From NCBI RefSeq assembly GCF_905475395.1, contig NC_058338.1, positions 9,252,935 to 9,316,934 on the forward strand: 64,000 bases of DNA, given 5' to 3'. Below, piece after piece: positions 13,085 to 64,000 of this stretch. Source of the DNA: Chrysoperla carnea. Its lineage: Eukaryota > Arthropoda > Insecta > Neuroptera > Chrysopidae. The notes below the pieces were generated by a model, which made no database searches, was not told the DNA's origin, and saw only the letters and a list, made by a program, of their open reading frames with translations. Numbering within the stretch: the first letter of the stretch is position 1; the number at the start of each line of letters is the position of its first letter. Made by a program: the position numbers and the translations under genes.

Positions 13085-16000
13085 ATGTTGGTTGACGTAT
13101 CAAAACGTGACATACGAATTCCAGTGAAATTTCTTCCATATTTGGAAAAGTATAATATCTATGCATTATTTCATGTAAGTTAAATTTTTAACTTTTATGC
13201 TTTCAGTTACTATTAATTAGATATCCCAAAAGTCAGTTGTTTCATTAGAACGAATATGTCAGATAGGCAAGCTATTTGACGGCCAAGGGTGCACGAATTA
13301 GGGGAGGGGTTTCAGTATGGCAGTCGTGGTCGAACCGGAGCACAATAAATATTAGTGTGGTAAGTACTTAAAAAAAATGGTAAGTAAGTACAAGCATTGC
13401 CATCTGGTAGTCGAAATTGTAACTACTGAATTCGGACCTTCTTCTGATTTTAATAAGTACGACTTATTATCGCCAGTTGGCGAGTTGCAACTCAAAGTTA
13501 TCAATAATATAATAATAAAGTTTACATTATTTCCAGGAAGTTGCACGGCAGTTAGCTGTTGCACAGCCAGTGGATCATATAAGTTATATGCACAATATTT
13601 TAAAACATGCTGCTGCTAAATGTAATGTACGGCAGATAATTATGTTAGCACCACCATTTTTAAATATGTTAAATCTTGCTAAACAACTAGCGGCAGAGAT
13701 AAATGTGACGATTGTAACTGAAACTCAAATTAATGAAGTTTTTGATCCGGTAATTATTTTTTTGTTTTGCCGGTTGCAACTTCAACTTGTGAATTATCTT
13801 AACCTTACTCTTATTACATGAGTTTCAACATAATGCATACGAAAGGAACAAGAAATCCTTCGAATTCTTCTATCGAATTATTGATTGTATGAAAAAAAAT
13901 CGATGCAAAACTTTTTCACAAGTTTTTGAAGCATTTCATTTAAATCGGTTTAGTTGTTTAGGCGTGATTGTGTAACATTCATACATACAGACAGACAGAG
14001 TTACTTTTGCATTTATAAATAAGTAAAGATTTTTTAATCTATGAAATTTTTTTAACTTTAAGCTTCTTATGAATTCTACTAAACCAGAAATTGAAGTGGC
14101 TAAATGGATTAAAAAATTAATTTCGTTGAATCATAAAGATTGTAATCAGGGATGGCTTATATTAGGTAAAATGAATATTAAAGAATCTTTTAATATTCTG
14201 TTGACAAAGTACAAATATTTTTATCATTTGCTTTAGGTTATCCTGAAACAAAACAAGAAGCTTTGGCTTTACAGAGGAATAGTGTAATACCTACACATGT
14301 TCTTAATTTTGTTCCTGCATTTATGGCACACATTGATGAACCAAATATACCGCAAGAATGGGTGAATTATCGTAAAAATTTGGCAGATCTACGAAAACTA
14401 TTTTCTAAGCAATGGCATGTAAGATCCAAATTTTATTCAATTTTGATAAACCAAGTATGTAATCCTACATAATTTGGGTCATAATTTTCAAATTTGTGAT
14501 CGAAATTAAACTAGCTCTAATAGGTTACAGGAATGTGGAGTCCTGGTTCCGGAATGAAGCAAATAAGTGATAGCTAACGAAAAACTGATATCACAGCTGA
14601 AAAGTATGACCCAAAATTAGTGGGTTTCAAAAAAAATTCCAATAAGATATGATCAAATTTGCCTGTGTTATCAAAAAAATCAAATTTTTTAACTTTATGA
14701 CGTCATCAAAATCCAAAAAATTTAATTTTGCTCTATCATATCCAAATTTTATCCAATTTTGATAAACCAAATATGTAATCCTACATAATTTGGGTCATAA
14801 TTTTCAAATTTGTGATCAAAATTAACCTAGCTCTAATAGATTTCAAGATTGTGGAGTCCTGGTTCTGGAATGAAGCACATAGGAGATAGCTAGCAAAAAA
14901 CTGATATCACAGCTGAAAAGAATGACCCAAATTTAGTGAGTTTCAAAAAAAATTCTAATAAGATACGATCAAATTTGCCTGTGTTAACAAAAAAATCAAA
15001 TTTTTTAACTTTATGACGTCATCAAAATCCAAAAAATTTAATTTTGCTCTATCACATCCAAATTTTATCCAATTTTGATAAACCAAGTATGTAATCCTGC
15101 TTAATTTGGTTCATAATTTTCAAATTTGTGATCAAAATTAACCTAGCTCTAATAGATTTCAAGATTGTAGAGACCTGGTCCCGGAAAGAAGCACATATGT
15201 GATAGCTAGCGAAAAACTGGTATCACAACCGAAAAGAATGACCCAAAATTAGTGGATTTCAAAAAAAATTCCAATAAAATCGGATCAAGCTTGCCTATGT
15301 TATCAAAAAAATCAATTTTTTTAACTTTATGACGTCTGGCTTTCATCGACTAACGTCGATATGTCTTCCAGTTACGGCTATTCCGATCGGCTTCTTTATT
15401 CTTACACATTTCTTTAAAATTATTTACCCTCCGGATCCTTCGAATCGTTAATGTACCAAGAAGTTTGATGTTCTAAGTGAATTTGTAAAAGATTTTGAAT
15501 TGTGATATTAAACCAACTGTCTTTACTGATATCTTTCTAAAATGTTACTAATTTTAGGATATAAGCATGACTGGGCGTGATATAACGGAACTGATGAGAG
15601 TTTGCTTGGATTTAACAACTTTTAATAATCGTCTTAAGTACGCAATAACTCCACGTATTTTGATAATTGGTTGCCCTGGTTCTGGACAAAAAACAATAGC
15701 CAAAGCATTACAAGAAAAACTTAAAATTGTTCATGGTAAATCTTGATTGTTTTAGTAAAATCCCAATCAAGTTTCACTTTTATAGTATTTAGCTTTTTAA
15801 TCGCTTCACAAAATTGAAAACTAAAACTTGACCAGCATTATACACAACAGGGTCAGTCTCCCTGGAAAATTTACTTGGGATGCGGTAAAAAATAAGAAAA
15901 ACTAACTTCATTAAATTAAATTCATTTGCAGTAAATTTTCAACTCATTCTCACCAGAGCTTTACGTAATAACGACCCTGCATTTAAAGAATACCAGGAAT

Positions 16001-16978
16001 TGAAAACAGATTTAAATATTAATCCATCAAAAAAGTCACGTTTACATATGGAGATATTAATGAAAATTTTGTTGGATCAAAAATGTGTAGAAAAAGGTTG
16101 GGTTGTAACTGGATTTCCAAATACATTGGAGGATATGAAACGATTAGATAAAACTGATACGCCACCAAACAGGTATTTATCAGCCAACAAAATTGTTATT
16201 TTGAAAGTTATGAGCTCAAATTCATATGAACTTCTTTAATTGTTTAGAATATTTTTTTTCGACTGTCCAGTTGAGATTTGCTTACAACGATTGAAAAATA
16301 AAACATCCTGTGAAAGTGTTAATATTCAGAAAAAAAGTCAAACATATGGTCAAGAAGCTAAAGATGATATGACGGTAAGTTTTGGCTTAAATTTATAGTT
16401 CAAATCAACTAACTAGAATTCTTTTGCTAATACATATAGAGAATTCGATCCCTTCTTAGTATGGGAAATCTTTAATGGGAAAAGAATGGGGTATTCGTTT
16501 AGCTAACGCAGCTCCTACGCTACGAATTTTTTGATAGCACTTATTTAACAACGAATTCTTTATTAGCAATGCTTTCTAACACAAACTGTATAACGGAGTA
16601 CATTTTTTATTCAAGGTAAAGGAAAATCATATAAATATTGATGAAATCAGTAAATATTGTGGTAAAACTGCTACACATATAAGAACAGATCAATCATGTA
16701 CCGATGTTTTAAACACTGTATTAGCATTAATAATGCGCGAAGCACCTATATCATTAGAACAGCGTAATCCATACGAGGAATACGAACGATTACCATGCAA
16801 GGAAAAATCACAAGATGCCATATCTCACACACGTGATGACTGTTTATTTACATTGTCAAATTTGGATTATGACAGTAGTATAAATTCGTCATCGAGTTCT
16901 AGCCCAGATTCGTCGAATACAACGAATACAACATCATCGTCGAATAGCCTGGGTATAGAAAATGAAGAGATTTACTAA
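13085..16978 (+). CDS. AK8: Adenylate kinase 8-like protein, probably catalytically inactive (8 exons)
   Basis: Eight GT-AG exons join in frame: 13085-13174, 13537-13749, 14063-14165, 14237-14418, 15558-15735, 15932-16172, 16248-16374 and 16616-16978, giving about 498 residues; vertebrate AK8 is about 480. The layout matches AK8: an N-terminal helix region, then two tandem adenylate-kinase domains. Alignable landmarks are CNVRQIIMLAPPF, GWLILGYPETKQEAL, TPRILIIGCPGSGQKT and KGWVVTGFPNTLEDMKRL. AK8 is a cilium/flagellum-associated nucleoside monophosphate kinase. Here the first P-loop (about residues 64-75) lacks Gly-rich and Lys residues, the second reads GCPGSGQKT (234-242) with Gln in place of the catalytic Lys, the DG-PR substrate motif is altered in both halves, and the lid with its DPxTGxxYH signature is missing from both. 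The C terminus is a Ser/Asn/Thr-rich tail. Family assignment is strong; inactivity is inference from these residues. Confidence 0.85.
13860..14034 (+). mobile_element. Non-LTR retrotransposon 3'-tail relic in AK8 intron 2
   Basis: The stretch from caatcggtt-like sequence (aaatcggtttagttgttta) through ggcgtgattgtgtaac to cagacagacagagttac and a final atttataaataagtaa resembles 3' ends of RTE-type LINE/SINE copies common in insects. Identification rests on general resemblance only. Confidence 0.4.
14422..15335. repeat. 316-bp tandem repeat filling AK8 intron 4
   Basis: About 2.9 copies in direct orientation. The landmark gataaacc falls at 14445, 14761 and 15077, giving a period of exactly 316 bp twice. 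Other landmarks are gacccaaa.ttagtg and ttttaactttatgacgtc. Copies differ by scattered substitutions. The array begins within a few bases of the intron donor: the splice-site flank itself (aagatccaaattttatt) is a variant of the internal unit. Confidence 0.85.
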
Positions 16979-50767: not shown

Positions 50768-50995
50768 ATAGTGTTATTCAATAAAAAACCGCTCAAGTGA
50801 GAGTTTACAGTTTCGTACTTTTTTTTCTTTTACACAAGTATTTGCGATGGTACAAAATCTTTTGTATGCGAGTCTGACTCGAACTTGACCAAATTATGAA
50901 ATAAAAATGTACACGTCGCTTTTCACACACACACATACCCCCCCCCCCCGCCCAAAAGATAAATTGAGTTGATTGATGATTTTTAAACGTTACCT

Positions 50996-51603
50996 ATACA
51001 ATTTCCTTGGCTCCCAATCAAGAAAAGCTTGCGAGGATGTCATATACCAAGAAGGTCTTAACAGATTAGGAGATAATCTGAAAAACCAACAATTAAAGGC
51101 ATGGACCAGCTACGAGGGAGGGCGAATCACCAAAAGCCTGTTGGGTGAAGGAAACTCGCTCGGAAACAGAGCCGAGGAGATCTTGAAACTCAACAGAGCT
51201 GATATTATAGTCATCGTAGAGTTACTCACAGGGCATGATAACTTGAACAAGTTCCAACATCAGATTGGAAAAAGACAATCTCCCGCGTGTGACAGATGCG
51301 GAGAAAATTCAGAAGAAACATCGATCCACTTTCTCTGTTACTGCCCGGCGCTCATACAGCAGCGAAGGAAACGGTTTGGTTCGGCCATAGTCGAACCATA
51401 AGAAATTAGGAAACTCAGCGCTAGGCAAATCCTGGGTTTCAGTTCATCAGTTGGTTATAATAGCCACTGAAAAGCGTAGCGGGGATAGAGTACAAGGGTC
51501 TATTTGGCTAGGTGCTCTGAACCATTACTTCGAGGCGCGATGCTCGAGCATGGCCCGCTAACCTCCATACCATACCATACCATATACCATACAATTTCCT
51601 TGG
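50996..51603 (+). mobile_element. 5'-truncated LINE copy with 15-bp target-site duplication
   Basis: The 15-bp sequence atacaatttccttgg occurs exactly at 50996-51010 and 51589-51603. Between them lie an open C-terminal retrotransposon reading frame (stop at 51401), a 3' UTR and a (CCATA)n-type tail. Exact duplication, 5' truncation and an intact frame are the signature of a recent target-primed insertion. Confidence 0.85.
51013..51401 (+). pseudogene. C-terminal fragment of non-LTR retrotransposon ORF2
   Basis: The frame carries CDRCGENSEETSIHFLCYCP, a C-x2-C-x8-H-x4-C zinc knuckle followed by ALIQQRRKRFG. This is the usual tail of ORF2 after the RNase H domain in R1/jockey-type elements. 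The upstream part (AWTSYEGGRITKSLL) fits the preceding region. No reverse-transcriptase domain is present because the copy is 5'-truncated. The apparent start codon at 50973 lies outside the insertion. Confidence 0.75.
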
Positions 51604-53013: not shown

Positions 53014-54205
53014 TTATTGATTTATTGTGTCATTTTTGGTAGACATAAAAGAATAATCGGACAAAAAGTTAATGTATTTTCTCAATCGATAATCTTGTGT
53101 TTGTTTCGCCAACCACTCAAACATATGTATTAAAAACTTTTGAAAATAATCGAGAAAATGCTCAGGTTGAGGATACTTTTGCAAATCAACATTTTCCAAA
53201 TACCATTGAAATAAATTCTTTAACATATCTTCAAAATATGTTATAACAAAATCTTCCGATTCAGATGGCTTAGATTGCCGATCAATTGCAATTGGAACAC
53301 ATTCTTGTTTTTGATTTCGGCAATAATTTGATTCACATTCGCAACCTGGTGTTATAACTTTTATGCAAGGGTATTGGTTGTGACATTGCTGATTACACAT
53401 TCCATTGCTGGCGGTAAACTTCTCATTGGAGCGTAAAGGACACTCTAAAATAAATTATTGTTAATTTTCAATGTTCATTTTATGTGGTATTTGTTGAAAG
53501 CAGAATGGAGCTGCCACTTGTGATAGCCGATATAACAGCTATTCAAGACGTTTATCGCTTTCAAGGCCTCTATTAGCAACATTGTTTGGGCTATTAAGAC
53601 GATTGAATCACGACTATTGCAGGAGGTGTTACAGTGAGGAGAAGGAAGAAACGACGCCTCACCTTCTTTGTCACTGCCCAGCTCTTGTCATGAAGAGAAC
53701 TTACTTGAGCCAACCTTTCTTTGATGACCTCTCCGACCTTCAGTCCGTTGACGGCAAAGCACTCTTGGTTCAAAGAATAGTGGCCGGAGATGAACCAATC
53801 CTTTTTCGGTCTCATACAATGGGCCCTATGGTATAAGTGTGCCCTATCCCAGTACAGCCACTCTAACCGTTACCTAATTTAACCTACTGATGTACTATTT
53901 TTACTTATTATTTCCTTCCTAAGTCATCCCGTTTAGACGAAAATAGGCACTTCGAATGAAACCTCGCCGCCTAAATAACATTAAGTAGTTTATGTAAGAG
54001 CCCATGGAGACTTAAAAGATTCTGGCCTGTTGCACGAAGAACAAAAAATAAAAAGTTGATTTTAATAAAATTGATGCTTACTTTCTTGAAGACATTTCTC
54101 AATTTCGTCAGCGTAAAAACATTCTGTTGGACGATGAATTATTACATCAGAATTTGTACAATTTATCAAAAATAAAATGTATAAAAAATATATTATAAAT
54201 AACAT
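53014..54205 (-). CDS. Secreted TIL-domain protein with short spacer and novel C-terminal domain
   Basis: Two exons, 54205-54082 and 53444-53014, GT-AG with phase 1, give 184 residues. Residues 1-19 are a hydrophobic signal peptide (MLFIIYFLYILFLINC). A ten-cysteine module spans C29 to about 92; its core from C43 fits a trypsin-inhibitor-like (TIL) domain (CPLRSNEKF, GMCNQQC, TPGCECESNYC, ECVP). After about 20 residues comes a 68-residue C-terminal domain, 107-174, with YFEDMLKNLFQWYLENV and YPQPEHFLDYF. The same end domains and the same intron position occur in the next gene upstream at 54.5-58.2 kb, so the two are paralogues. TIL domains often inhibit serine proteases, but no reactive site can be assigned with certainty. 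The stop codon overlaps an AATAAA motif (53013-53018 on the minus strand). A LINE fragment sits in the intron. Confidence 0.85.
53490..54050 (+). pseudogene. LINE C-terminal fragment in the intron of the short TIL gene
   Basis: On the strand opposite the gene, a frame ending at 53836 has CRRCYSEEKEETTPHLLCHC followed by PALVMKR, the zinc-knuckle tail of non-LTR ORF2. A 3' UTR-like stretch follows to about 54050 (ggcctgttgcacgaagaac and an A-rich end). The copy is 5'-truncated. No clear target-site duplication was found. Confidence 0.65.
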
Positions 54206-54524: not shown

Positions 54525-57500
54525 TCAAAAAGAAAATTTCTTTAAAAGTTTGGTGTATTTGAGCCATCGAGGATCTTTTGTTTTGTGATGCCGCCATTTA
54601 AATAAAGCAATTAAATTGGTTTTAACATAATTAAGAAAATGTCTTGGCTGGAGATACTCTTGTGCATTAACGTTTCTCGTATACCAATCTAATAAATCTT
54701 GATATACGCCTTTAAAATAGTCAACCAAAGAACCTTGGGACTTTGAATTATTACCTAAATGTCCCTTGTTTGGCTTAATATTACCCGAGAAGGTGGCACT
54801 CGGTTTTTTCCCACTAGAAATGAAATTATTTCCACCTGAGTAATCTGGCTTCATACCATATGGGTAAGGTCGTCCGCCAGTTGGAGCAATACTACCCATG
54901 CTGGGGTAAGATAAAATTGGCCTTGTTGGTTTCAAACCTGGGGGGCCTATCACTGGTCTAAGACTATTCTGAAAGATGCCAGTCGGTTTTCTACCACTTG
55001 AGACACTACCAAACCCAGCATGATTGGCACCTGGTTTACCATTATGTGTGTGACCACTGCCTAGATGATGAATATGATCAATATGTATTCCAAAAACACC
55101 TGTTTGCAAGCCTCCCGGACTGTTCAGGATCGGTCTTCCAATATTTGAAAAATAATTACCCGGTATTGCAACTCCAGGCCTAGAAGTCCAAGTATTATAA
55201 TGACCTTTATATGGTTTAAACCCAGGATTAAAGTGACCTTTAGATGGTTTACCTATATTTGAAGGTTTATTAAATGGCTTTATAGCATAAGGGAAATGAA
55301 GATGTATATTTACTGGATTATCTTTTGAAGCATGATCATTGGGAAGTCCACCAGTTGAAAACCCATTGGTTGGGAAGTTTCCTAATGGTAAACCACCTGT
55401 TTGGAGACTACTCAATAGTAAAGTACTATTTGGCACTTTTTTACCGGGTAAAGCTGTTAACAAAGGATACCACCCGAGAATACCAAAACCGTCTAACCTA
55501 GGTTGATTTACATTGATTTGTTTATCATTCGGTTTATGACTATCTTTGGCTTGTTCAAGTTCAGGCACTGGCGGCGTAATCCAATCTACCATCGCCTGTG
55601 GCGATGAATCTGGATAATCTATTGAATTGTGACCTTCTGGGCGATTAATAAGCGGTGAAGATGGTATATTTGTATTATCTATTGGGTATAAAGAGGACGA
55701 ATAGTTCATTATCGGACCTGGTTGGATATTGCTCGGTTGATTAATTAAGTAATAACTCTCGTTTTGCATATCAATATTTGACTCAACCAGGTAATTACTT
55801 GCTACTTGGGAACTAACGTTTTTTACACCTTCAGAATAAATTTCGTCATCCTGATCACCAGACAATATGCTTTTATTTTCGTTATCATTTTGAATATTTT
55901 CCATAATTTTCGAAATTGAATCTCCAGTTGATACCTCTGGAAGACTCATGGATTGATTACCATCTAATTCCACCTGACTCATTTGAATTGAATTTGTTGG
56001 TGTTTGATTAACAACATTTATATCATTACCTTGTTGACCATCTTCCGTTTCATTAATAACCTGCTGATCTTCTTCCAGTTGGAGATTACTTGCTTGATTA
56101 ATTAAGTAATTACTCTCGTTTTGCGTATGCATATTTTGTTCACCCAAGTTATTGCCCTCTAATTTTGTACTAACGTTTTGCACACCTTCTGAAACAATTT
56201 TATCAACCTGATCACCAATGGAAATGATTTCGTGTTCGTCTTCACTTTGATGAAATTCCATATTTGCAGAAATCGATTCTTCAATCGATGCCCCTGGAAG
56301 GCTTACAGATTGATTATCTTTATTCAATTGAACTGAATCTATTAACTCAACATACCCCGGTTGATCAACACCATTCATATCATCGCCTCGTTGGCCACCT
56401 TCCGTTTCATTAATAACCTGCTGATCTTGTTCCAGTTGGAGATTGCTTGGTTGATTAATGAAGGAATTACTCTCGTTTTGCGTATGATTATTTTGTTCAC
56501 CCAAGTTATTGCCCTGTAATTGTGTACTAACGTTTTTTACACCTTCTGAATGATTACCAATAGATTGAAGTTTTTCCAAACTTTCAGAAATCGATTCTTC
56601 AATCGATGCCTCTGGAAGACTTATAGATTGATTACCTTCTAGCTGATTACCCCATGATTCCACTTTACTCAATTGAATTGAATTTGTTAACACCGTTTCA
56701 TTAATAACCTGTTGACCTTCTTCCAGTTCAACAACAGCCTGTTTTCCTTGTCCATGTTGCTCCTCTCCCGATTCATAATCATCTTCTTCACTACTTTCTG
56801 GTTGTTCTTCTTCGGGTTGATCATTTTGCGAAATGGGTGCATTAGGCACATCTGGAACACTTAGTTTATTTAGGCAATCATTTGGAAAATCTGGAACACA
56901 TAACTCTATTATTGGTTCACTATTGTTTGGATCATTAGTCGTCCGATCCCTCAAATCAAGATTATTGTCTTCTTCAAAATTAATTAGATCGGGAGATTCT
57001 GGCCTTTGCTGAATGAATAAAGGAATTACCTTTTGTGCGGTATTTTCTTTTAAACTATACATAGATTGTACTGGTCTAATGATGTCGCCTTCATTGTTGA
57101 TAGAATAGTGGTTATTTTTGTTGTTAATTTCAATAATATTCCTCAGAAACTTCATAAAATCACCATGCGAATAATAACCCCTTTTGGTATCATAACTTAA
57201 GTAATCCGTATTAATAACACCAGCATTTTTTAGATAATCTATATTTCGAAAATTGTTTCTCTCGTATCCTGTGTTTGATTTTCTATGATTTGGAAATCTG
57301 TTACGCCAATAATTACTAAGGCCAATTTTCGAGTAAACTAAATTCTCAAAAGCATCAATTGAAATACAATTTTGTTGTCTATTTCGGCAGTAATTTGGTT
57401 TACATTCGCAACCAGGAGTTGGGATTTTTATACAACGAGATATGTATCCACACTGAAGATTACACATGCCATTGGAGGGAGTATACCGTTCATTGGGACG

Positions 57501-58218
57501 TAATGCACATTCTAGAACAAAAGGATTAATTTTCATATATTAATCTAAATTGGATCATTTCATTAGGATGTAGGAGTAGTCTAAGAGGTGAAAAGAGTGG
57601 TCACCATAATAAGAACCAAAATATTCTTTGTTACTACAGTTGAACTTCGATGACTCGAACCACGGTATGTCGTAGTCCTCAATAGATCGAAATAAATGCC
57701 ATTCCCTTCCGCTGAACCTCTAAAAATATAAATGTAATAGAACCTATCTTACAAAAAAAACCGAAGAATCTTCAAAATCACTGGGACACACAAATATGCA
57801 AATATGTTTACTTCGCTAATATGTTATATGTTTCAAATTTTTAAACATGCTACATTTTTCCCCTTATTACCATGATTTTCTAAATAGAAAGGAAAATTAA
57901 CTTTTGTGTTTCTATTCATGGACGAACCGACGAACCGAGTGGAGTCTTAGGCCAAATACGCTCATTAACGAATTTATATGCCCGACAAAATAATATCGAT
58001 TCAAATGAAAGCATTAAATACCTACACCAGATCCCGAATACTATTTAGAATGTGTAATTCTCAATATAATTTACCAAAAAAATCAAAAATATTTACTTAC
58101 GTTGTTCAAGACATTGTGTATCAATTGAAGAACATTGTGGCAAATGATACAAAACATCATAAGCTTTAGTAAAATCGTACAAAATTAATATAAAATATAA
58201 ACCTATTAGGCGTAACAT
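54525..58218 (-). CDS. Large secreted TIL-domain protein with 880-residue low-complexity spacer
   Basis: Exons 58218-58101 and 57511-54525 (GT-AG, phase 1) give 1034 residues. The internal ATG at 57536 is intronic and is not the start. Residues 1-19 are a signal peptide (MLRLIGLYFILILYDFTKA). A ten-cysteine module runs from C29 to about 84 with a TIL-like core (CALRPNERY, GMCNLQC, TPGCECKPNYC). A long spacer follows: acidic Gln/Asn/Ser sequence with about three diverged ~130-residue repeats (landmarks QQVINET, SLPEASIEESIS, EGVKNVS, HTQNESN) rich in N-glycosylation sequons, then a Gly/Pro/Asn/His-rich, collagen- or silk-like part (about 690-950). The last 70 residues are the C-terminal domain (DWYTRNV, YLQPRHFLNY) shared with the 184-residue paralogue. 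Likely an extracellular matrix, coat or silk-type protein; the role is not established. Confidence 0.88.
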
Positions 58219-59394
58219 ATTTTGTAAAAATTTTTAATTCTTGCAATAACCATCTTTTAAAATTATTAATTATTATATTTTTTGATAAAAATATTTTATC
58301 AAAATTCGATAATCAGATAAAATGATCGAAAACAAAAATAAATGTTGATGTTATTTTAACTAGTATTAATTAGTGCAGGGCACGTAATTAGAATTTCAAT
58401 GTAAATTTCAAAAGAAATCAATTTCTTATATGGGATGGACCGTTTTAATCTATTAAGGCTAATTATAGGCTGGGTCAGTGATTCCCAAAGAGTCGACAAT
58501 GGCCTACAAGGGAGCCATTCGAACGAAAAAAGAATTGGGGGTCTGTTAAATGTAAACAGGAATTTACGATAGTCGATCTCATTTAAGCAAGTTTCGATAA
58601 TTTTCACCAATTAAATCAATTCACAATCAATTATTGTTTTATGATAGTCTCCTCTAAATTCTAAAGTGATAACTACTAATTTAAGGAATTTGGTAGCTCT
58701 GTGAATTGATAAATCTTTCTATTTTTCCCACAGCCACATGTCCCGAATCACGCCTCAGATCGAAATTTGGTAAAGAGCTTTTCCATTTGTCTTGATAAGC
58801 TTAATTTACTGGTATAATTTTCTGCTATCAATAAAGAACAGCCTGTATATCTATGGTTAAAAATATACCAATAAGGAACTAAAGTATTCAAACTTCGCCA
58901 CTGTACCCATCGGTTTGACCCAACCATTATTTTTTTTACAAATGTATATCATATACCAATCAATAGAATACAAATTTCTAGTTATTGTGAGAACGAAAAG
59001 AAAATTTATTCAATATAAATAAAATTTAAATAATATTTATAATAACAATTTAAATTTATCTTATCAAATTTAAAATTACCTATAATTCTCCTCAAAAATG
59101 GAATATGTGTGTACACTAAGAAAGGATTCTTCGAAATTCGTCCCTTACGAGGTTAAAATAAGGATTGAAAGTTTGTTTTTTCATTCTCTAATTCATTCTT
59201 TAAGGGGTAAATAGAGTAAGAAAGTTTATATGGACCTCCGTCTTTTTTAAATACTTGTATGAATTTAAAATTGAAGGAAGAATTGTAGCAAAGCGTGGGG
59301 GGGGGGGGGTTAACTGCTAGTGTATTACAACGCAGTCAGTGAAAACGCTTAGATTTAATAACTAAGAAATTGTCAGTCAGGTAATGGGGGGCCG
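58219..59394. other. Intergenic, nothing recognised
   Basis: This stretch separates two same-strand secreted-protein genes. It holds a short repeat piece near 58760-58850 shared with about 43010-43085 and an uninterrupted G run near 59300-59312. No TATA box is obvious upstream of 58218. Confidence 0.45.
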
Positions 59395-60618
59395 TTATTT
59401 GAGAACCGATTGTGGACCTCTATTTGCCGACTGGATCGGTTGAATATTCGGCTGAAAAGATTGCGGATTTGTATATTGTAAATTCGTCAGTTGATTATTC
59501 CTAATTCGATCAGCTGGTTGAACAGACTGTGAACCAACATTTTTGGGTTCATTTCTTGTGGGAGGTAGTTCTGTAAAACGTGATTGAGCGTTTTGTTGTG
59601 CTGCCCACCACCACCAACCTAGATTACCACCACCACCACTCGACGAACCTGGAGCAGTTCCACCTCCTCCACTTGATGAACCTGAAGCAATTCCACCACC
59701 ATCAATTGATGAACTTGGAGCAGTTCCACCACCACCACTTGCTGAACTCGGAGCAATTTCACCACCACTATAACCACCATTTCCCCCTTTAGGTGGGGCA
59801 GATTGTGGATTTACGATATCTGAGAGAATGTCAACTCGAGGTGGTTTACCGCCATGTTTTTTGGGTTTTGGATCCTCCTCGTAATGATAATTATTATTTT
59901 TTATATTCGAAATTGTTGTTGGTGATTCGTTAGTTCCATTACCATGAGGAACTTCGCTTACAGGTTCACGATTTGAGGGAATATCAACTCGCGGTGGTTT
60001 ACCTCCATGTTTTTTGGGTTTTGGGTCTTCCTCGTACTGATAATTATTACTTTTTATATTCGAAATTGTTGTTGGTGATTCATTAGTTCCATAACCATGA
60101 GGAACTTCACTTACAGGATCACGATCTGAGGGGATATCAACTCGAGGTGGTCTACCTCCATGTTTTTTGGGTTTTCGGTCCTCCTCGTACAGATAATTAT
60201 TACTTTTTATATTCGAAATTGTTGTTGGTGATTCAGTAGTTGCAAAATCATAAGGAGCTTCACTTGCAGGATCACGATCTGAGAGAATATCAGCTCGGGG
60301 TGGTTTATCACCATTTTTTTTGGCTTTCGGGTCTTCCTCGGCCTGATAATTACTACTTTCTATATTCGAAATTGTTGTTGGCAATTCATTAGTTCCATAA
60401 TCATATGGAGCTTCACTTGCAGGATCACGATCTGAGAGAATGTCAACTCCAGGTGATTTAACTACATTTTCTTTGGGTTTCGGGTCCTCCGCGGCAATAC
60501 CTTCTATATTCGAAATTGATGTTGTTGAATCATCTTGACGTTTTACTTTTTTGAACTCAGAGCCTTTTGTAAAATTAAGCAAATATATTATAAAACTTAA
60601 ATGTAATAATCGTAACAT
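59395..60618 (-). CDS. Secreted repeat protein with one GGGGNLGWWWW block
   Basis: A single-exon frame of 407 residues. The signal peptide (MLRLLHLSFIIYLLNFTKG) closely resembles that of the neighbouring long TIL protein (MLRLIGLYFILILYDFTKA). A basic site KKVKR at 23-27 could be cut by a furin-type protease. Then come about four and a half tandem units of roughly 52 residues (EEDPKPKKHGGKPPRVDI, then SDRDPxSExP, then ESPTTISNIKSNNY). A Gly/Ser-rich stretch with SSGGGGTAP-like units leads into GGGGNLGWWWW at 328-338, followed by AAQQNAQ and an Asn/Gln/Pro-rich tail. The same 11-residue block occurs twice in the next gene. I know no family with this block. Gly-, Trp- and repeat-rich secreted proteins are often structural or adhesive, which is inference here. 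Confidence 0.85.
   Translation of the reverse strand: MLRLLHLSFIIYLLNFTKGSEFKKVKRQDDSTTSISNIEGIAAEDPKPKENVVKSPGVDILSDRDPASEAPYDYGTNELPTTISNIESSNYQAEEDPKAKKNGDKPPRADILSDRDPASEAPYDFATTESPTTISNIKSNNYLYEEDRKPKKHGGRPPRVDIPSDRDPVSEVPHGYGTNESPTTISNIKSNNYQYEEDPKPKKHGGKPPRVDIPSNREPVSEVPHGNGTNESPTTISNIKNNNYHYEEDPKPKKHGGKPPRVDILSDIVNPQSAPPKGGNGGYSGGEIAPSSASGGGGTAPSSSIDGGGIASGSSSGGGGTAPGSSSGGGGNLGWWWWAAQQNAQSRFTELPPTRNEPKNVGSQSVQPADRIRNNQLTNLQYTNPQSFQPNIQPIQSANRGPQSVLK
59605..59637 (-). other. GGGGNLGWWWW-coding block, copy 1
   Basis: Codons on the minus strand are GGT GGT GGT GGT AAT CTA GGT and then four TGG. Compare the copies at 62510 and 62864: the amino acids are identical while the Gly and Leu codons differ. 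Confidence 0.9.
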
Positions 60619-60689
60619 TGTTCTACTTGATAGAATTATTCGTTCTTCATTGATAGAATATGTATATTGAAATTATTCGAAGAGTAACT

Positions 60690-60703
60690 GCCTATTTATG
60701 AAA
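60690..60703 (-). promoter_or_regulatory. Possible TATA-like box
   Basis: The minus strand reads cataaatagg about 75-85 bp upstream of the start codon at 60618, a plausible position for a core promoter TATA element. No experimental or comparative support. Confidence 0.25.
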
Positions 60704-61049
60704 TTTGGATGATGTAAAGAAAAAACAAATAACTATAATTGTTATTTCTACTAATTAGTAATATTAATTATTAATAATTGTGCTTTATTTATACCTCTGT
60801 ATACACGCTTAGCTTATTACATTCAAAGCTCCAGCCATCAATCATCAAAGCATATTCGTCATACGGATATAAGATATATTTGTTGAACTAAAAAATGTAA
60901 ATTACACGATAAGAAATGTATTGCCTTTATTACAATGCTGGTATGGTACAGGGACAGATATTAAAAAAGTATCTGATAATACTCTATTAGTATTGTCGTA
61001 ATATGGATCTTACGATGATTGGTGCTGCATTTAGCTGGTACCCTATACC

Positions 61050-61352
61050 ATATACAGAATGTTCGATTTACATCTAGGCATATAAATATCACGAGTATGA
61101 CAGAGTACATGCGTTAAGCATTGGATCTAAGTAAAAGGTATTATAGGTGTTTTATGAAATAGCAAAAGTGACTTGTATCGTGGCTTATCTGTTGTAGTTC
61201 ATCTAGTCAACTAAGAAACTCCCAACTATCTCAACGCATATCGAAGCATCAACACATGTATATAATACCTCTCACTTAGATACATTGTTTAACGCATATA
61301 TTCTGTCATACTCGTGATATATGCCTAGATGTAAATCGAATATTCTGTACAT
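61050..61352. mobile_element. Terminal-inverted-repeat element, ~75-90-bp arms
   Basis: The left arm (acagaatgttcgatttacat, then ctaggcatataaatatcacg, then agtatgacagagtacatgcg) pairs in inverse with the right arm ending tgcctagatgtaaatcgaat and attctgta. The interior contains gtatcgtggcttatctg. About 300 bp, no ORF, so a MITE. A related copy in opposite orientation is at 25990-26215. Confidence 0.75.
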
Positions 61353-61742
61353 ATATCAGACAAATTGCCATAAAATACTTCAAAAAAGAAGTTCATGAAA
61401 TCTTATCTTATTCACAATTTAAGTTGAAAGTTCTATCATTTTACATGCAAAACTCCTTTATAGTAGTTTTAAGTTTGTATACAGAGATCGTTTAGCATTT
61501 CACTGCATATGTTTAATTAGACGATGATTACTTGGTGTATAAACTTGTGGGAAATAAGCGTGTGTAAAATAAAGTCGCGGAGATTTTGAAATCCATAATT
61601 CATTTGGCAATAGTCAAAATAAGTGATTAAAATAAAAGTAATATAAATAATTTCGAAAGATATATATTATATTTTCGATTAAAAGTCATAATGTAATAGT
61701 AAGAGACCCGAAAATGATTTTCAGTATCATGAAAATATTATT

Positions 61743-61920
61743 TTTAACCCCCGAACCAAAAAGGGGGTGTTACAATATTATAAGTTTGACAGCTATGTGT
61801 ATCTGTCTGTAGCATTGTAGCGCTTAAAGGAGTGAACCGATTTGGATTTTGTTTATTTCGTTAGAAAGTTAATTTAATGCGGAGTTCTTGGATACGTTTC
61901 AAGTGCGAGTGTTTTGTCTT
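61743..61920 (+). repeat. GGGGGTTAA-family repeat, plus orientation
   Basis: Starts aacccccgaaccaaaaaggg, then ataagtttgacagctatgtg, gtgaaccgatttgg and gaaagttaatttaatgcgga, colinear with the copy at 41012. Confidence 0.7.
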
Positions 61921-62341
61921 CTTAAATACTTTAAAATATGTGAATCCCACTTTGTTAACGGGAAAATAGACTTGTACCTACTTTCGTCAATATAACCGAA
62001 AATTAAAATTAAATTGGAAATTTTTGAAAAGGAAAATAAAACAGAAAGCCATTTTGAAATAATTTTAATGTTGAGTCCAATTTTTTACAGTTTTTATTCC
62101 TAAAAAGATTAACAATTTCAATTTCAATCGATCGATTCATTTTTTACGTGTTAGAAGAATTTGGTCTTTTTTTAATTTCTGGGCTAATTCAAAATATTAT
62201 GGCTGCAGTTGCATCCATACGAATACTCAGATACTTTTCAGAGAGCTAGCTATACGTCTTCAATTACTAGAAGAACAATAATGTATTGCATAAACCCCTT
62301 TTTTGGGAGCTAAAAATAAAAAAATTTGTTCTTATGTTTCG

Positions 62342-64000
62342 TTAGCTAGGTTTTGGGTAATCATTATTGGGTACAATACCCCATGGTAAATTATTGCCAT
62401 TTGAAAGACCATAGGCTCCCGGAATACCAGACATTTTGCCAATTGGAAAACCATAACTCTTCGCACGCAGTAGAGCGTTTTTAGAGTTTTTCGCATTCTG
62501 TTGAGCCATCCACCACCACCATCCAAGATTTCCACCGCCGCCACTTGAGGGTTGATGATTAATACTCCTCCTTCTCCTAGTCATTTGCTGCTCTTGATTT
62601 GGATAGTTTAAGAGATTATCGTTTTCGAAACCATTTTGGTGGTGATCTCCATGCGGAATATTATTATCGGAAGAATCTATATAGTTATTTGGTTGACTAC
62701 CTTCCGGTAGTCTCTCATTTGCAAAAGTATCTTCAGGGAAATCATCATTTGGAATGGCATTTTTTGACTGGGACTGATTTGGGGAACTAACTTTGGATGG
62801 ATTACTTTGAAGATGCCAAAATTTATTATTGTTCATCCCATTGTTACTTTTACTATTAGCCGACCACCACCACCAGCCTAAATTACCACCACCGCCACTT
62901 GAATAACCTCCAGCGTTAGAAGGACCATTATTCGTAAATTGATCCCAACCACCATTACTTCCTGGTAAACCATAACTGTTATCACCATCACTACCATCGG
63001 ATACTATACCATTCATCGTCTGTTCGTTTACTGAATTAACACCATTTTCAGTTTCGGTACAGTCTAATGATTGATCTTTACCCACTTGACCATTATTACT
63101 TTGATCAAAACCGTATTGTCCAAAGCCATCTGGGCTACCTTGGCCATAACCTTCTTGGGCATTACCTCCTTTATCATAGCCACCTTGAATATATCCATTT
63201 TGATAGCCTTGATCATATGCACCTTGCCCATATCCGGCTTGGTCATAGTCACCTTGACCATTACCATTTCCCAGCATGTTGACCACTGGACCACCACCTG
63301 GTTGGCCGTAGCCATTAACTTGGGTGTAGCTTTTACCCTGGCTATAACTACTACCACTAGTTTGACCTCCACCTTGATGGCCATAACTATTGCCTAGTCC
63401 AATTTGATCACCGCTTTCCTGGCCATAAGAATTACCTTGTCCATAACTATAACCTTGGGGATTACCAGGTTGGGCGTAGCTTGGTATACCAAAACTACCA
63501 TTTTGACTAACGCCTGGATTTCCATAACCAGGTTGGCCTGATGTATCATTTTGACCAACGCCAGTTTTGTTATACATATAACTGAATGTAGTAAAATTTT
63601 TTTGAACAATACGTCCCGTTTCAAGCTGAGGTCTATAACTAATATCACTCTCCGAATCGACTATTTTCTTCATTCCTTCCGAACGCTTCGGTTGATATGG
63701 AAGTTGTATGCGTGGATTCAGTACAGGGGAACTTGCAATAGTTGTATGATTAGTTTTATTCCGAATCGTATTCCTTTCTTTAACTAGAAATCTCTTTTTA
63801 GTCCCTATCACATCTAGGCTTTTAGTTGACCTGCCCTTTGCAGTCTCCTTATTGGCTATGTTACCAGCTTTAACCTTATCAACTGATGTCGTCTTCGTTG
63901 GAACATTCATGGTATCTGAGAAACTCGTTTCAACAAGTCCATCTGGTATGCTATTTGTTTCAAACTCCTCACCAACTTGGTTAACCGTGTCAGCCTCACC
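62342..64000 (-). CDS. Gly/Gln/Tyr-rich protein with two GGGGNLGWWWW blocks (5' end beyond window)
   Basis: The frame is open from the window edge to a stop at 62342: 552 visible residues. The ATG at 63910 is preceded by 30 in-frame sense codons (ending LVETSFSDT), so the true start lies outside. Order: a Lys/Thr-rich part with possible basic cleavage sites; a silk-like Gly/Gln/Tyr/Ser region of imperfect GYGQG, SYGQ and YDQG repeats (about visible residues 140-300); first GGGGNLGWWWW at 369-379; an Asn/Ser/Asp-rich linker; a furin-like RRRRS at about 475; second GGGGNLGWWWW at 487-497 followed by MAQQNAKNSK and a short tail. The block and the following QQNA match the 407-residue neighbour, so the two are related at least in this module. 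Prion-like Tyr/Gln/Gly composition suggests self-association; function is unknown. Confidence 0.85.
   Translation of the reverse strand, partial: GEADTVNQVGEEFETNSIPDGLVETSFSDTMNVPTKTTSVDKVKAGNIANKETAKGRSTKSLDVIGTKKRFLVKERNTIRNKTNHTTIASSPVLNPRIQLPYQPKRSEGMKKIVDSESDISYRPQLETGRIVQKNFTTFSYMYNKTGVGQNDTSGQPGYGNPGVSQNGSFGIPSYAQPGNPQGYSYGQGNSYGQESGDQIGLGNSYGHQGGGQTSGSSYSQGKSYTQVNGYGQPGGGPVVNMLGNGNGQGDYDQAGYGQGAYDQGYQNGYIQGGYDKGGNAQEGYGQGSPDGFGQYGFDQSNNGQVGKDQSLDCTETENGVNSVNEQTMNGIVSDGSDGDNSYGLPGSNGGWDQFTNNGPSNAGGYSSGGGGNLGWWWWSANSKSNNGMNNNKFWHLQSNPSKVSSPNQSQSKNAIPNDDFPEDTFANERLPEGSQPNNYIDSSDNNIPHGDHHQNGFENDNLLNYPNQEQQMTRRRRSINHQPSSGGGGNLGWWWWMAQQNAKNSKNALLRAKSYGFPIGKMSGIPGAYGLSNGNNLPWGIVPNNDYPKPS
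62510..62542 (-). other. GGGGNLGWWWW-coding block, copy 3
   Basis: Minus-strand codons GGC GGC GGT GGA AAT CTT GGA and four TGG, followed by ATG GCT CAA CAG. Differs synonymously from copies 1 and 2. Confidence 0.9.
62864..62896 (-). other. GGGGNLGWWWW-coding block, copy 2
   Basis: Minus-strand codons GGC GGT GGT GGT AAT TTA GGC and four TGG, followed by TCG GCT AAT. Confidence 0.9.

What the first reader, a model, noticed from the sequence alone, without database searches (positions are those of the whole stretch)
59605..62896. Exact 11-residue block GGGGNLGWWWW in three places in two genes, conserved despite synonymous change
Three copies (59605-59637, 62510-62542, 62864-62896) are identical in protein but use different Gly and Leu codons. 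Copies 1 and 3 extend the match into x-A-Q-Q-N-A. Four consecutive Trp residues are very rare. Keeping exactly four while neighbouring codons drift argues for selection on the peptide and not recent DNA copying. It may be an aggregation, adhesion or receptor-binding motif.
Basis: seen in the sequence. Interest (0 to 1): 0.85.

Follow-up and report, generated by a model that had tools for sequence, protein, structure and literature searches.

The report
Four-tryptophan motif in glycine-rich proteins
Two neighbouring genes, probably from an insect, encode flexible proteins that share little except a short block ending in four tryptophans, which selection seems to have kept unchanged and which may be a sticky patch that helps a silk- or glue-like secretion hold together.

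Summary
The DNA differs at 7 of 39 positions, every difference synonymous; dN is 0 for both C-D pairs at dS about 0.9 or saturated. Tandem repeats within gene C have lower dS (0.14-0.33) yet more protein change (dN 0.05-0.16). Selection on the peptide is therefore well supported. One detail is wrong: the copies at 59605 and 62510, not 59605 and 62864, extend into xAQQNA. All 4 Trp of C and 8 of 11 of visible D lie in the motif. C starts with a signal-peptide-like segment resembling that of a neighbouring TIL-like gene. Best reading: Cys-poor, low-complexity secreted structural or adhesive proteins with a Trp4 'sticker'. Function is inferred, not shown. The motif string is absent from the open-access papers searched. 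No animal sequence collection is available here, and the window's own genome did not complete (18 calls), so species, paralogues and conservation between species are untested.

The parts
59605..59643 (-). Motif copy in gene C, SSGGGGNLGWWWW (GGGGNLGWWWW is 59605-59637)
59587..59604 (-). Extension AAQQNA after the gene C copy
62510..62548 (-). Second motif copy of gene D, SSGGGGNLGWWWW
62492..62509 (-). Extension MAQQNA after the second gene D copy
62864..62902 (-). First motif copy of gene D, SSGGGGNLGWWWW, followed by SANSKSN instead of xAQQNA
59395..60618 (-). Gene C, single open frame of 407 aa from ATG, stop included; S/P/G/N-rich, no Cys
60562..60618 (-). Signal-peptide-like start of gene C (MLRLLHLSFIIYLLNFTKG), similar to the start of gene B
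   Evidence: no dedicated signal-peptide predictor was run
60538..60549 (-). KVKR, a possible dibasic processing site near the start of gene C (inference)
   Evidence: sequence; the cleavage consensus is recalled
59818..60490 (-). 153-bp (51-aa) tandem array of 4.4 units in gene C
59627..59768 (-). 33-bp (11-aa, SSSGGGGTAPG-like) array of 4.3 units in gene C; its last unit runs into the motif
62342..64000 (-). Gene D, open frame of 552 aa visible, 5' end outside the window; G/N/S/Q-rich, one Cys
62567..62578 (-). RRRR followed by S, a possible furin-type site just before the second gene D copy (inference)
   Evidence: sequence; the cleavage consensus is recalled
54525..58218 (-). Gene B, neighbour: exon 1 about 58101-58218 with signal-like start, exon 2 about 54525-57511 with weak TIL match; borders read from splice consensus only
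53014..54205 (-). Gene A, neighbour and paralogue of B: exon 1 about 54082-54205, exon 2 about 53014-53444; borders read from splice consensus only

Best explanation
Genes C and D encode low-complexity, probably disordered and secreted, structural or adhesive proteins of an animal, probably an insect (silk, salivary cement, glue or egg coat). SSGGGGNLGWWWW is a sticker module: a flexible Ser/Gly linker presents a compact patch of four tryptophans that joins chains to each other or to a surface by aromatic stacking, cation-pi and hydrophobic contacts, in proteins with almost no cysteine. Shown here: the exact shared block, its conservation at the amino-acid level, the concentration of Trp in it, the low-complexity context, and the signal-peptide-like start of gene C. 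Inferred: disorder, secretion, the material role and the contact chemistry.
For: Identical peptide with only synonymous differences in 3 copies. All 4 Trp of gene C and 8 of 11 of the visible part of D lie in the motif. Low-complexity composition with 0 and 1 Cys. Tandem repeats of 51 aa and 11 aa in gene C. Start of C 57.9% identical over 19 residues to the start of gene B (E=1.4e-4 with B as query, 0.001 with C as query), hydrophobic. Neighbouring genes A and B have weak, below-cut-off TIL matches; [quoted passage not shown] Precedent for aromatic-driven phase separation and ageing to an adhesive in a disordered Gly-rich secreted protein: tick GRP77 (PMC11794139, abstract and passages). A work on self-assembled tetra-tryptophan nanostructures exists (its title only, in reference lists).
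Against: No expression, proteomic or assembly data. In tick GRPs the aromatics are Tyr/Phe spread along the chain and arginine matters more; here Trp sits in one or two blocks, which gives low sticker valence. In synthetic (WY)3 peptides Trp was seen exposed to solvent, at concentrations where the authors suggest monomers (PMC10795196, passages). DNA upstream of A, B and C is not significantly alike, so shared gland expression is unsupported. The single-sequence model puts the motif in a helix (mean pLDDT 56.7), which does not favour a cross-beta contact. Gene D's N-terminus lies outside the window, so its secretion is untested.
Confidence: 0.42

Rival explanations
1. Short binding motif: the Trp block binds a definite partner (chitin or another polysaccharide, a second protein, or a receptor) rather than acting as a general sticker.
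For: Exact conservation, including the non-aromatic N-L-G and in two copies AQQNA, is stricter than a general hydrophobic patch would seem to need. One copy in C and two in D fits a recruitment motif.
Against: No known binding family matched. No partner is known.
Confidence: 0.22
2. Membrane-active or bioactive peptide: cleavage at RRRR in gene D frees a C-terminal piece that carries the second copy, and the Trp run inserts into membranes.
For: RRRRS lies 6 residues before SSGGGG of the second copy. A single-sequence model gives one helix over GNLGWWWWMAQQNAKNSKNALLRAKS.
Against: Model confidence is low (mean pLDDT 56.7). Helical hydrophobic moments are modest, at most 0.42, 0.34 and 0.29 for the three copies. 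The other two copies have no such site directly before them.
Confidence: 0.1
3. Microsatellite accident: GGT and TGG are the same repeat in two frames, so the Gly and Trp runs are by-products of a GGT repeat without function.
For: Poly-Gly as GGT and poly-Trp as TGG are one repeat read in different frames; other frames of the gene C array show WWWW too.
Against: The repeat is broken by synonymous changes in the Gly codons while the Trp count stays at four in 3 of 3 copies, and the identity covers the non-repeat S-S, N-L-G and in two copies AQQNA. Neutral simulation kept the peptide in 0 of 200000 runs at K=0.89; it models substitution only, not repeat length change.
Confidence: 0.06
4. Recent copying or gene conversion spread the block between C and D without selection.
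For: The genes are neighbours and tandem duplication is active in gene C.
Against: dS is 0.89, 0.93 and saturated between the three copies, higher than between the tandem units of gene C.
Confidence: 0.03
5. Translational pause: the Trp run slows the ribosome during secretion.
For: Poly-Trp stalls yeast ribosomes (PMC7913769, abstract and passages).
Against: There more than 11 consecutive Trp were needed for quality control and eight to block CAT-tailing; here there are four. It would not explain SSGGGGNLG.
Confidence: 0.03

Closest known systems
Tick salivary glycine-rich cement proteins (tick-GRP77)
   Same: Disordered Gly-rich secreted chain with aromatic residues as stickers between polar or Gly spacers (PMC11794139, abstract and passages).
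   Different: Aromatics there are Tyr and Phe spread along the chain; here Trp in one or two exact blocks. No tick sequence was compared.
Insect silk and glue proteins with associated protease inhibitors
   Same: Low-complexity, tandemly repeated proteins beside TIL-like genes; [quoted passage not shown]
   Different: No silk family matched by Pfam; no expression data; no silk sequence was compared.
CPLCW cuticular proteins
   Same: Low-complexity insect secreted proteins named for tryptophan.
   Different: Described as mosquito-only with an invariant Trp in a conserved domain (PMC12426002, passages); four consecutive Trp is another pattern. No CPLCW sequence was compared.
Synthetic tetra-tryptophan peptides
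   Same: Four consecutive Trp in self-assembled nanostructures (title only, seen in the reference lists of PMC7966729, PMC10795196 and PMC7844296).
   Different: Synthetic; here the run is embedded in a long protein behind SSGGGGNLG.

Membership tests
Secreted low-complexity structural or adhesive protein (broad kind) | N-terminal signal peptide | tested here: inconclusive
   Gene C: hydrophobic start, 11-residue Kyte-Doolittle maximum 2.32, similar to gene B's start; no dedicated predictor was run. Gene D's start is outside the window.
Secreted low-complexity structural or adhesive protein (broad kind) | Low-complexity, tandemly repeated chain | tested here: met
   C: S 11.5%, P 11.1%, G 10.1%; D: G 15.9%, N 11.8%, S 10.3%; 153-bp and 33-bp arrays in C, only short arrays of low score in D.
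Secreted low-complexity structural or adhesive protein (broad kind) | Expression in a secretory gland and presence in the secreted material | not testable with these tools
   No transcriptome or proteome is on hand.
Glycine-rich protein (GRP) as defined for ticks | At least 20% Gly | tested here: not met
   10.1% in C and 15.9% in visible D; the 20% rule is from PMC11772090, start of abstract.
CPLCW cuticular proteins | Mosquito-specific conserved domain with an invariant Trp | not tested
   Definition seen in PMC12426002, passages; no CPLCW sequence was fetched. Pfam showed no cuticle family for C or D.
Any Pfam family or PDB-represented relative | Significant profile or sequence match of C or D | tested here: not met
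   Best Pfam E 0.15 for C and 0.61 for D, both below cut-off; none for the two C-terminal pieces. PDB: none for D at E up to 1, one E=0.46 match of C to a diabody Fv, none for the 20-aa motif peptide at E up to 10.
TIL protease inhibitor (neighbour genes A and B only) | Pfam TIL domain above the gathering cut-off | tested here: not met
   16.2 and 12.3 bits against 24.5; cysteine pattern shared between A and B.

The most novel reading that the evidence does not exclude
SSGGGGNLGWWWW, with xAQQNA in two copies, is an undescribed portable Trp4 assembly module shared by otherwise unrelated secreted low-complexity proteins, and acts as the cross-linking contact of a new class of Cys-poor silk or glue.
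Probability: 0.27. Interest if true: 0.72.

Novelty: new variant of a known kind. Interest (0 to 1): 0.5.

Why it matters
Low-complexity secreted proteins tend to diverge fast, so a block kept exact while synonymous sites approach saturation marks a residue-level requirement inside otherwise loosely constrained sequence. If Trp4 is the contact that holds such a material together, it gives a 13-residue, easily altered unit for testing how a protein secretion sets without disulfides.

Tried and rejected
Prokaryotic or viral relatives of the motif: 0 stretches in viral contigs with a pattern for GGGGNLGWWW. Genome contigs with a shorter pattern (GGGNLGWWW, which also admits Phe for Leu) gave 2 stretches, on two contigs of one Opitutia MAG: L001 reads GGGNLGWWW in one frame and L002 reads GGGNFGWWW, both near contig ends in DNA full of GGTTGGTGG-like repeats. 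I take them as repeat coincidence; whether a gene lies there was not tested.

Motif in print: no paper with GGGGNLGWWWW, GGGNLGWWWW or GNLGWWWW. Of LGWWWW, GWWWWA, GWWWWS, GGWWWW and NLGWWW only GGWWWW was found, in 6 papers that by their titles most likely use it as DNA code (listing only). The library is open-access PMC. Listings for Trp-rich silk, fungus-gnat silk, consecutive Trp with glue, novel silk with Trp residues, TIL in silk gland, CPLCW, tetra-tryptophan and stickers showed no such motif in titles or abstract starts.

Shared promoter of A, B and C: the best local alignment score was reached by 47%, 8% and 5% of 300 block shuffles; not significant.

C against D outside the motif: with composition adjustment and the motif masked the best is E=8.0; without adjustment a low-complexity match of E=1.7e-4 appears. 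With adjustment and no mask, C as query did not report the motif (best E=6.7), while D as query did at 4e-6; BLAST depends on direction for such sequences.

Amphipathic helix: moments at most 0.42; uninformative. Models: D's last 83 aa, mean pLDDT 56.7, helix 21-46; gene A exon 2 frame, mean pLDDT 52.9, first 67 residues below 50. No fold search was run, because of the low confidence.

Taxon: not established. TIL-like genes and reverse-transcriptase-like fragments fit an arthropod; this is inference.
Full report
OBSERVATION. A pattern for GGGGNLGWWWW matches exactly three times in the 64 kb window, each time on the minus strand (59605-59637, 62510-62542, 62864-62896); the mean in 100 dinucleotide-preserving shuffles is 0. 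The shared block is 13 residues, SSGGGGNLGWWWW. The copies at 59605 and 62510 go on as AAQQNA and MAQQNA; the copy at 62864 goes on as SANSKSN.

GENES. Copy 59605 lies in gene C, an open frame of 407 aa (59395-60618). The other two lie in gene D, an open frame of 552 aa that runs off the window (62342-64000). The motif starts at residue 326 of C and at residues 367 and 485 of the visible part of D. C is S/P/G/N-rich without Cys; D is G/N/S/Q-rich with one Cys. C holds a 153-bp (51-aa) array and a 33-bp (11-aa) array of SSSGGGGTAPG-like units, the last of which runs into the motif. C starts with MLRLLHLSFIIYLLNFTKG, 57.9% identical over 19 residues to the start of the neighbouring gene B (E=1.4e-4 or 0.001 by direction; hydropathy).

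SELECTION. Across the three copies 7 of 39 positions vary and each change is synonymous. By NG86 over 13 codons dN is 0 for C against both D copies, with dS 0.89 for one pair and saturated for the other. The two D copies have dS 0.93 and a nominal dN of 0.03, although their peptides are identical; it must come from averaging paths between the Leu codons CTT and TTA. Over 20 codons C against the AQQNA-bearing D copy has dN 0.07 with saturated dS; the other two pairs have dN 0.26 and 0.30 with dS 0.96 and 0.70, because the flank after the 62864 copy differs. Only about 7.7 synonymous sites enter the 13-codon estimate, so dS is rough. As an internal control, four 51-aa units of gene C (6 pairs, first 35 codons of each) have dS 0.14-0.33 and dN 0.05-0.16: less synonymous divergence, yet more protein change. 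In a Jukes-Cantor simulation the peptide survived in 0 of 200000 runs at K=0.89 and in 30 of 200000 at K=0.3. Trp has one codon only, so the run itself shows no synonymous change.

TRP CONCENTRATION. All 4 Trp of C and 8 of 11 of visible D are in the motif. Outside it, C and D do not align when composition is adjusted for (best E=8.0); without adjustment a low-complexity match of E=1.7e-4 appears.

NEIGHBOURS. Genes A (53014-54205) and B (54525-58218) look like two-exon paralogues. Each has a weak TIL match below Pfam's cut-off (E=0.012 and 0.2); they share 61.8% identity over 55 residues and 39.7% over 73 residues at the C-terminus. Their first introns, read from splice consensus only, fall in the same phase and place. 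DNA upstream of A, B and C is not significantly alike, so common regulation is not shown.

SEARCHES ELSEWHERE. No viral contig; two repeat-like stretches in one Opitutia MAG among the prokaryote genomes; no Pfam family above cut-off for C or D; no convincing PDB relative. No paper in the open-access library holds the motif string. No eukaryote sequence collection is on hand and the window's own genome did not complete (18 calls, the last), so paralogues, orthologues and species stay unknown.

STRUCTURE. A single-sequence model of D's last 83 residues gives one helix over residues 21-46, GNLGWWWWMAQQNAKNSKNALLRAKS (mean pLDDT 75 for residues 21-30, 56.7 overall). This is weak evidence; if right, it speaks for a helix and not for a cross-beta strand.

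MECHANISM. The best reading is a secreted, low-complexity, Cys-poor structural or adhesive protein in which SSGGGGNLG presents Trp4 as a sticker. A precedent for aromatic-driven phase separation and ageing into an adhesive is tick GRP77 (PMC11794139, abstract and passages), though its aromatics are Tyr/Phe, spread out, and arginine plays the larger part. Self-assembled tetra-tryptophan is known to me here only from a title in reference lists. Rivals are a short binding motif, a membrane-active peptide freed at RRRR in D, a GGT/TGG microsatellite accident, gene conversion, and a translational pause, which in yeast needs much longer Trp runs (PMC7913769, abstract and passages).

VERDICT. A real peptide block that shows strong signs of selection and was not found in the papers searched; its function is open and its spread across species untested. 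Interest 0.5; new variant of a known kind.

Noticed in passing
53014-54205 and 54525-58218 (minus): Pair of two-exon TIL-like genes with a shared C-terminal region; gene B has a long low-complexity middle of several hundred residues between the shared ends that gene A lacks.
   Followed up: partly
59818-60490 (minus): 51-aa tandem repeat of 4.4 units in gene C with low synonymous divergence between units.
   Followed up: partly
55470-55484 (minus): GILGW in gene B (in GFGILGWYP) fits G-x-L-G-W; chance resemblance or a decayed relative of the motif.
   Followed up: no
50973-51401 and 53498-53836 (plus): Fragments like the C-terminal zinc-binding end of non-LTR reverse transcriptases: weak zf-RVT match for the first, by eye for the second.
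   Followed up: no
14722-14766 and 15038-15082 (plus): The same 15-codon stretch appears twice 316 bp apart (rows), pointing to a local DNA repeat.
   Followed up: no
15889-16239 (plus): Frame with a weak adenylate-kinase match, E=0.039, below cut-off; a P-loop-like stretch lies by eye in the frame at 15558-15743.
   Followed up: no
59297-59309: Run of 13 G (plus strand) about 85 bp downstream of gene C.
   Followed up: no
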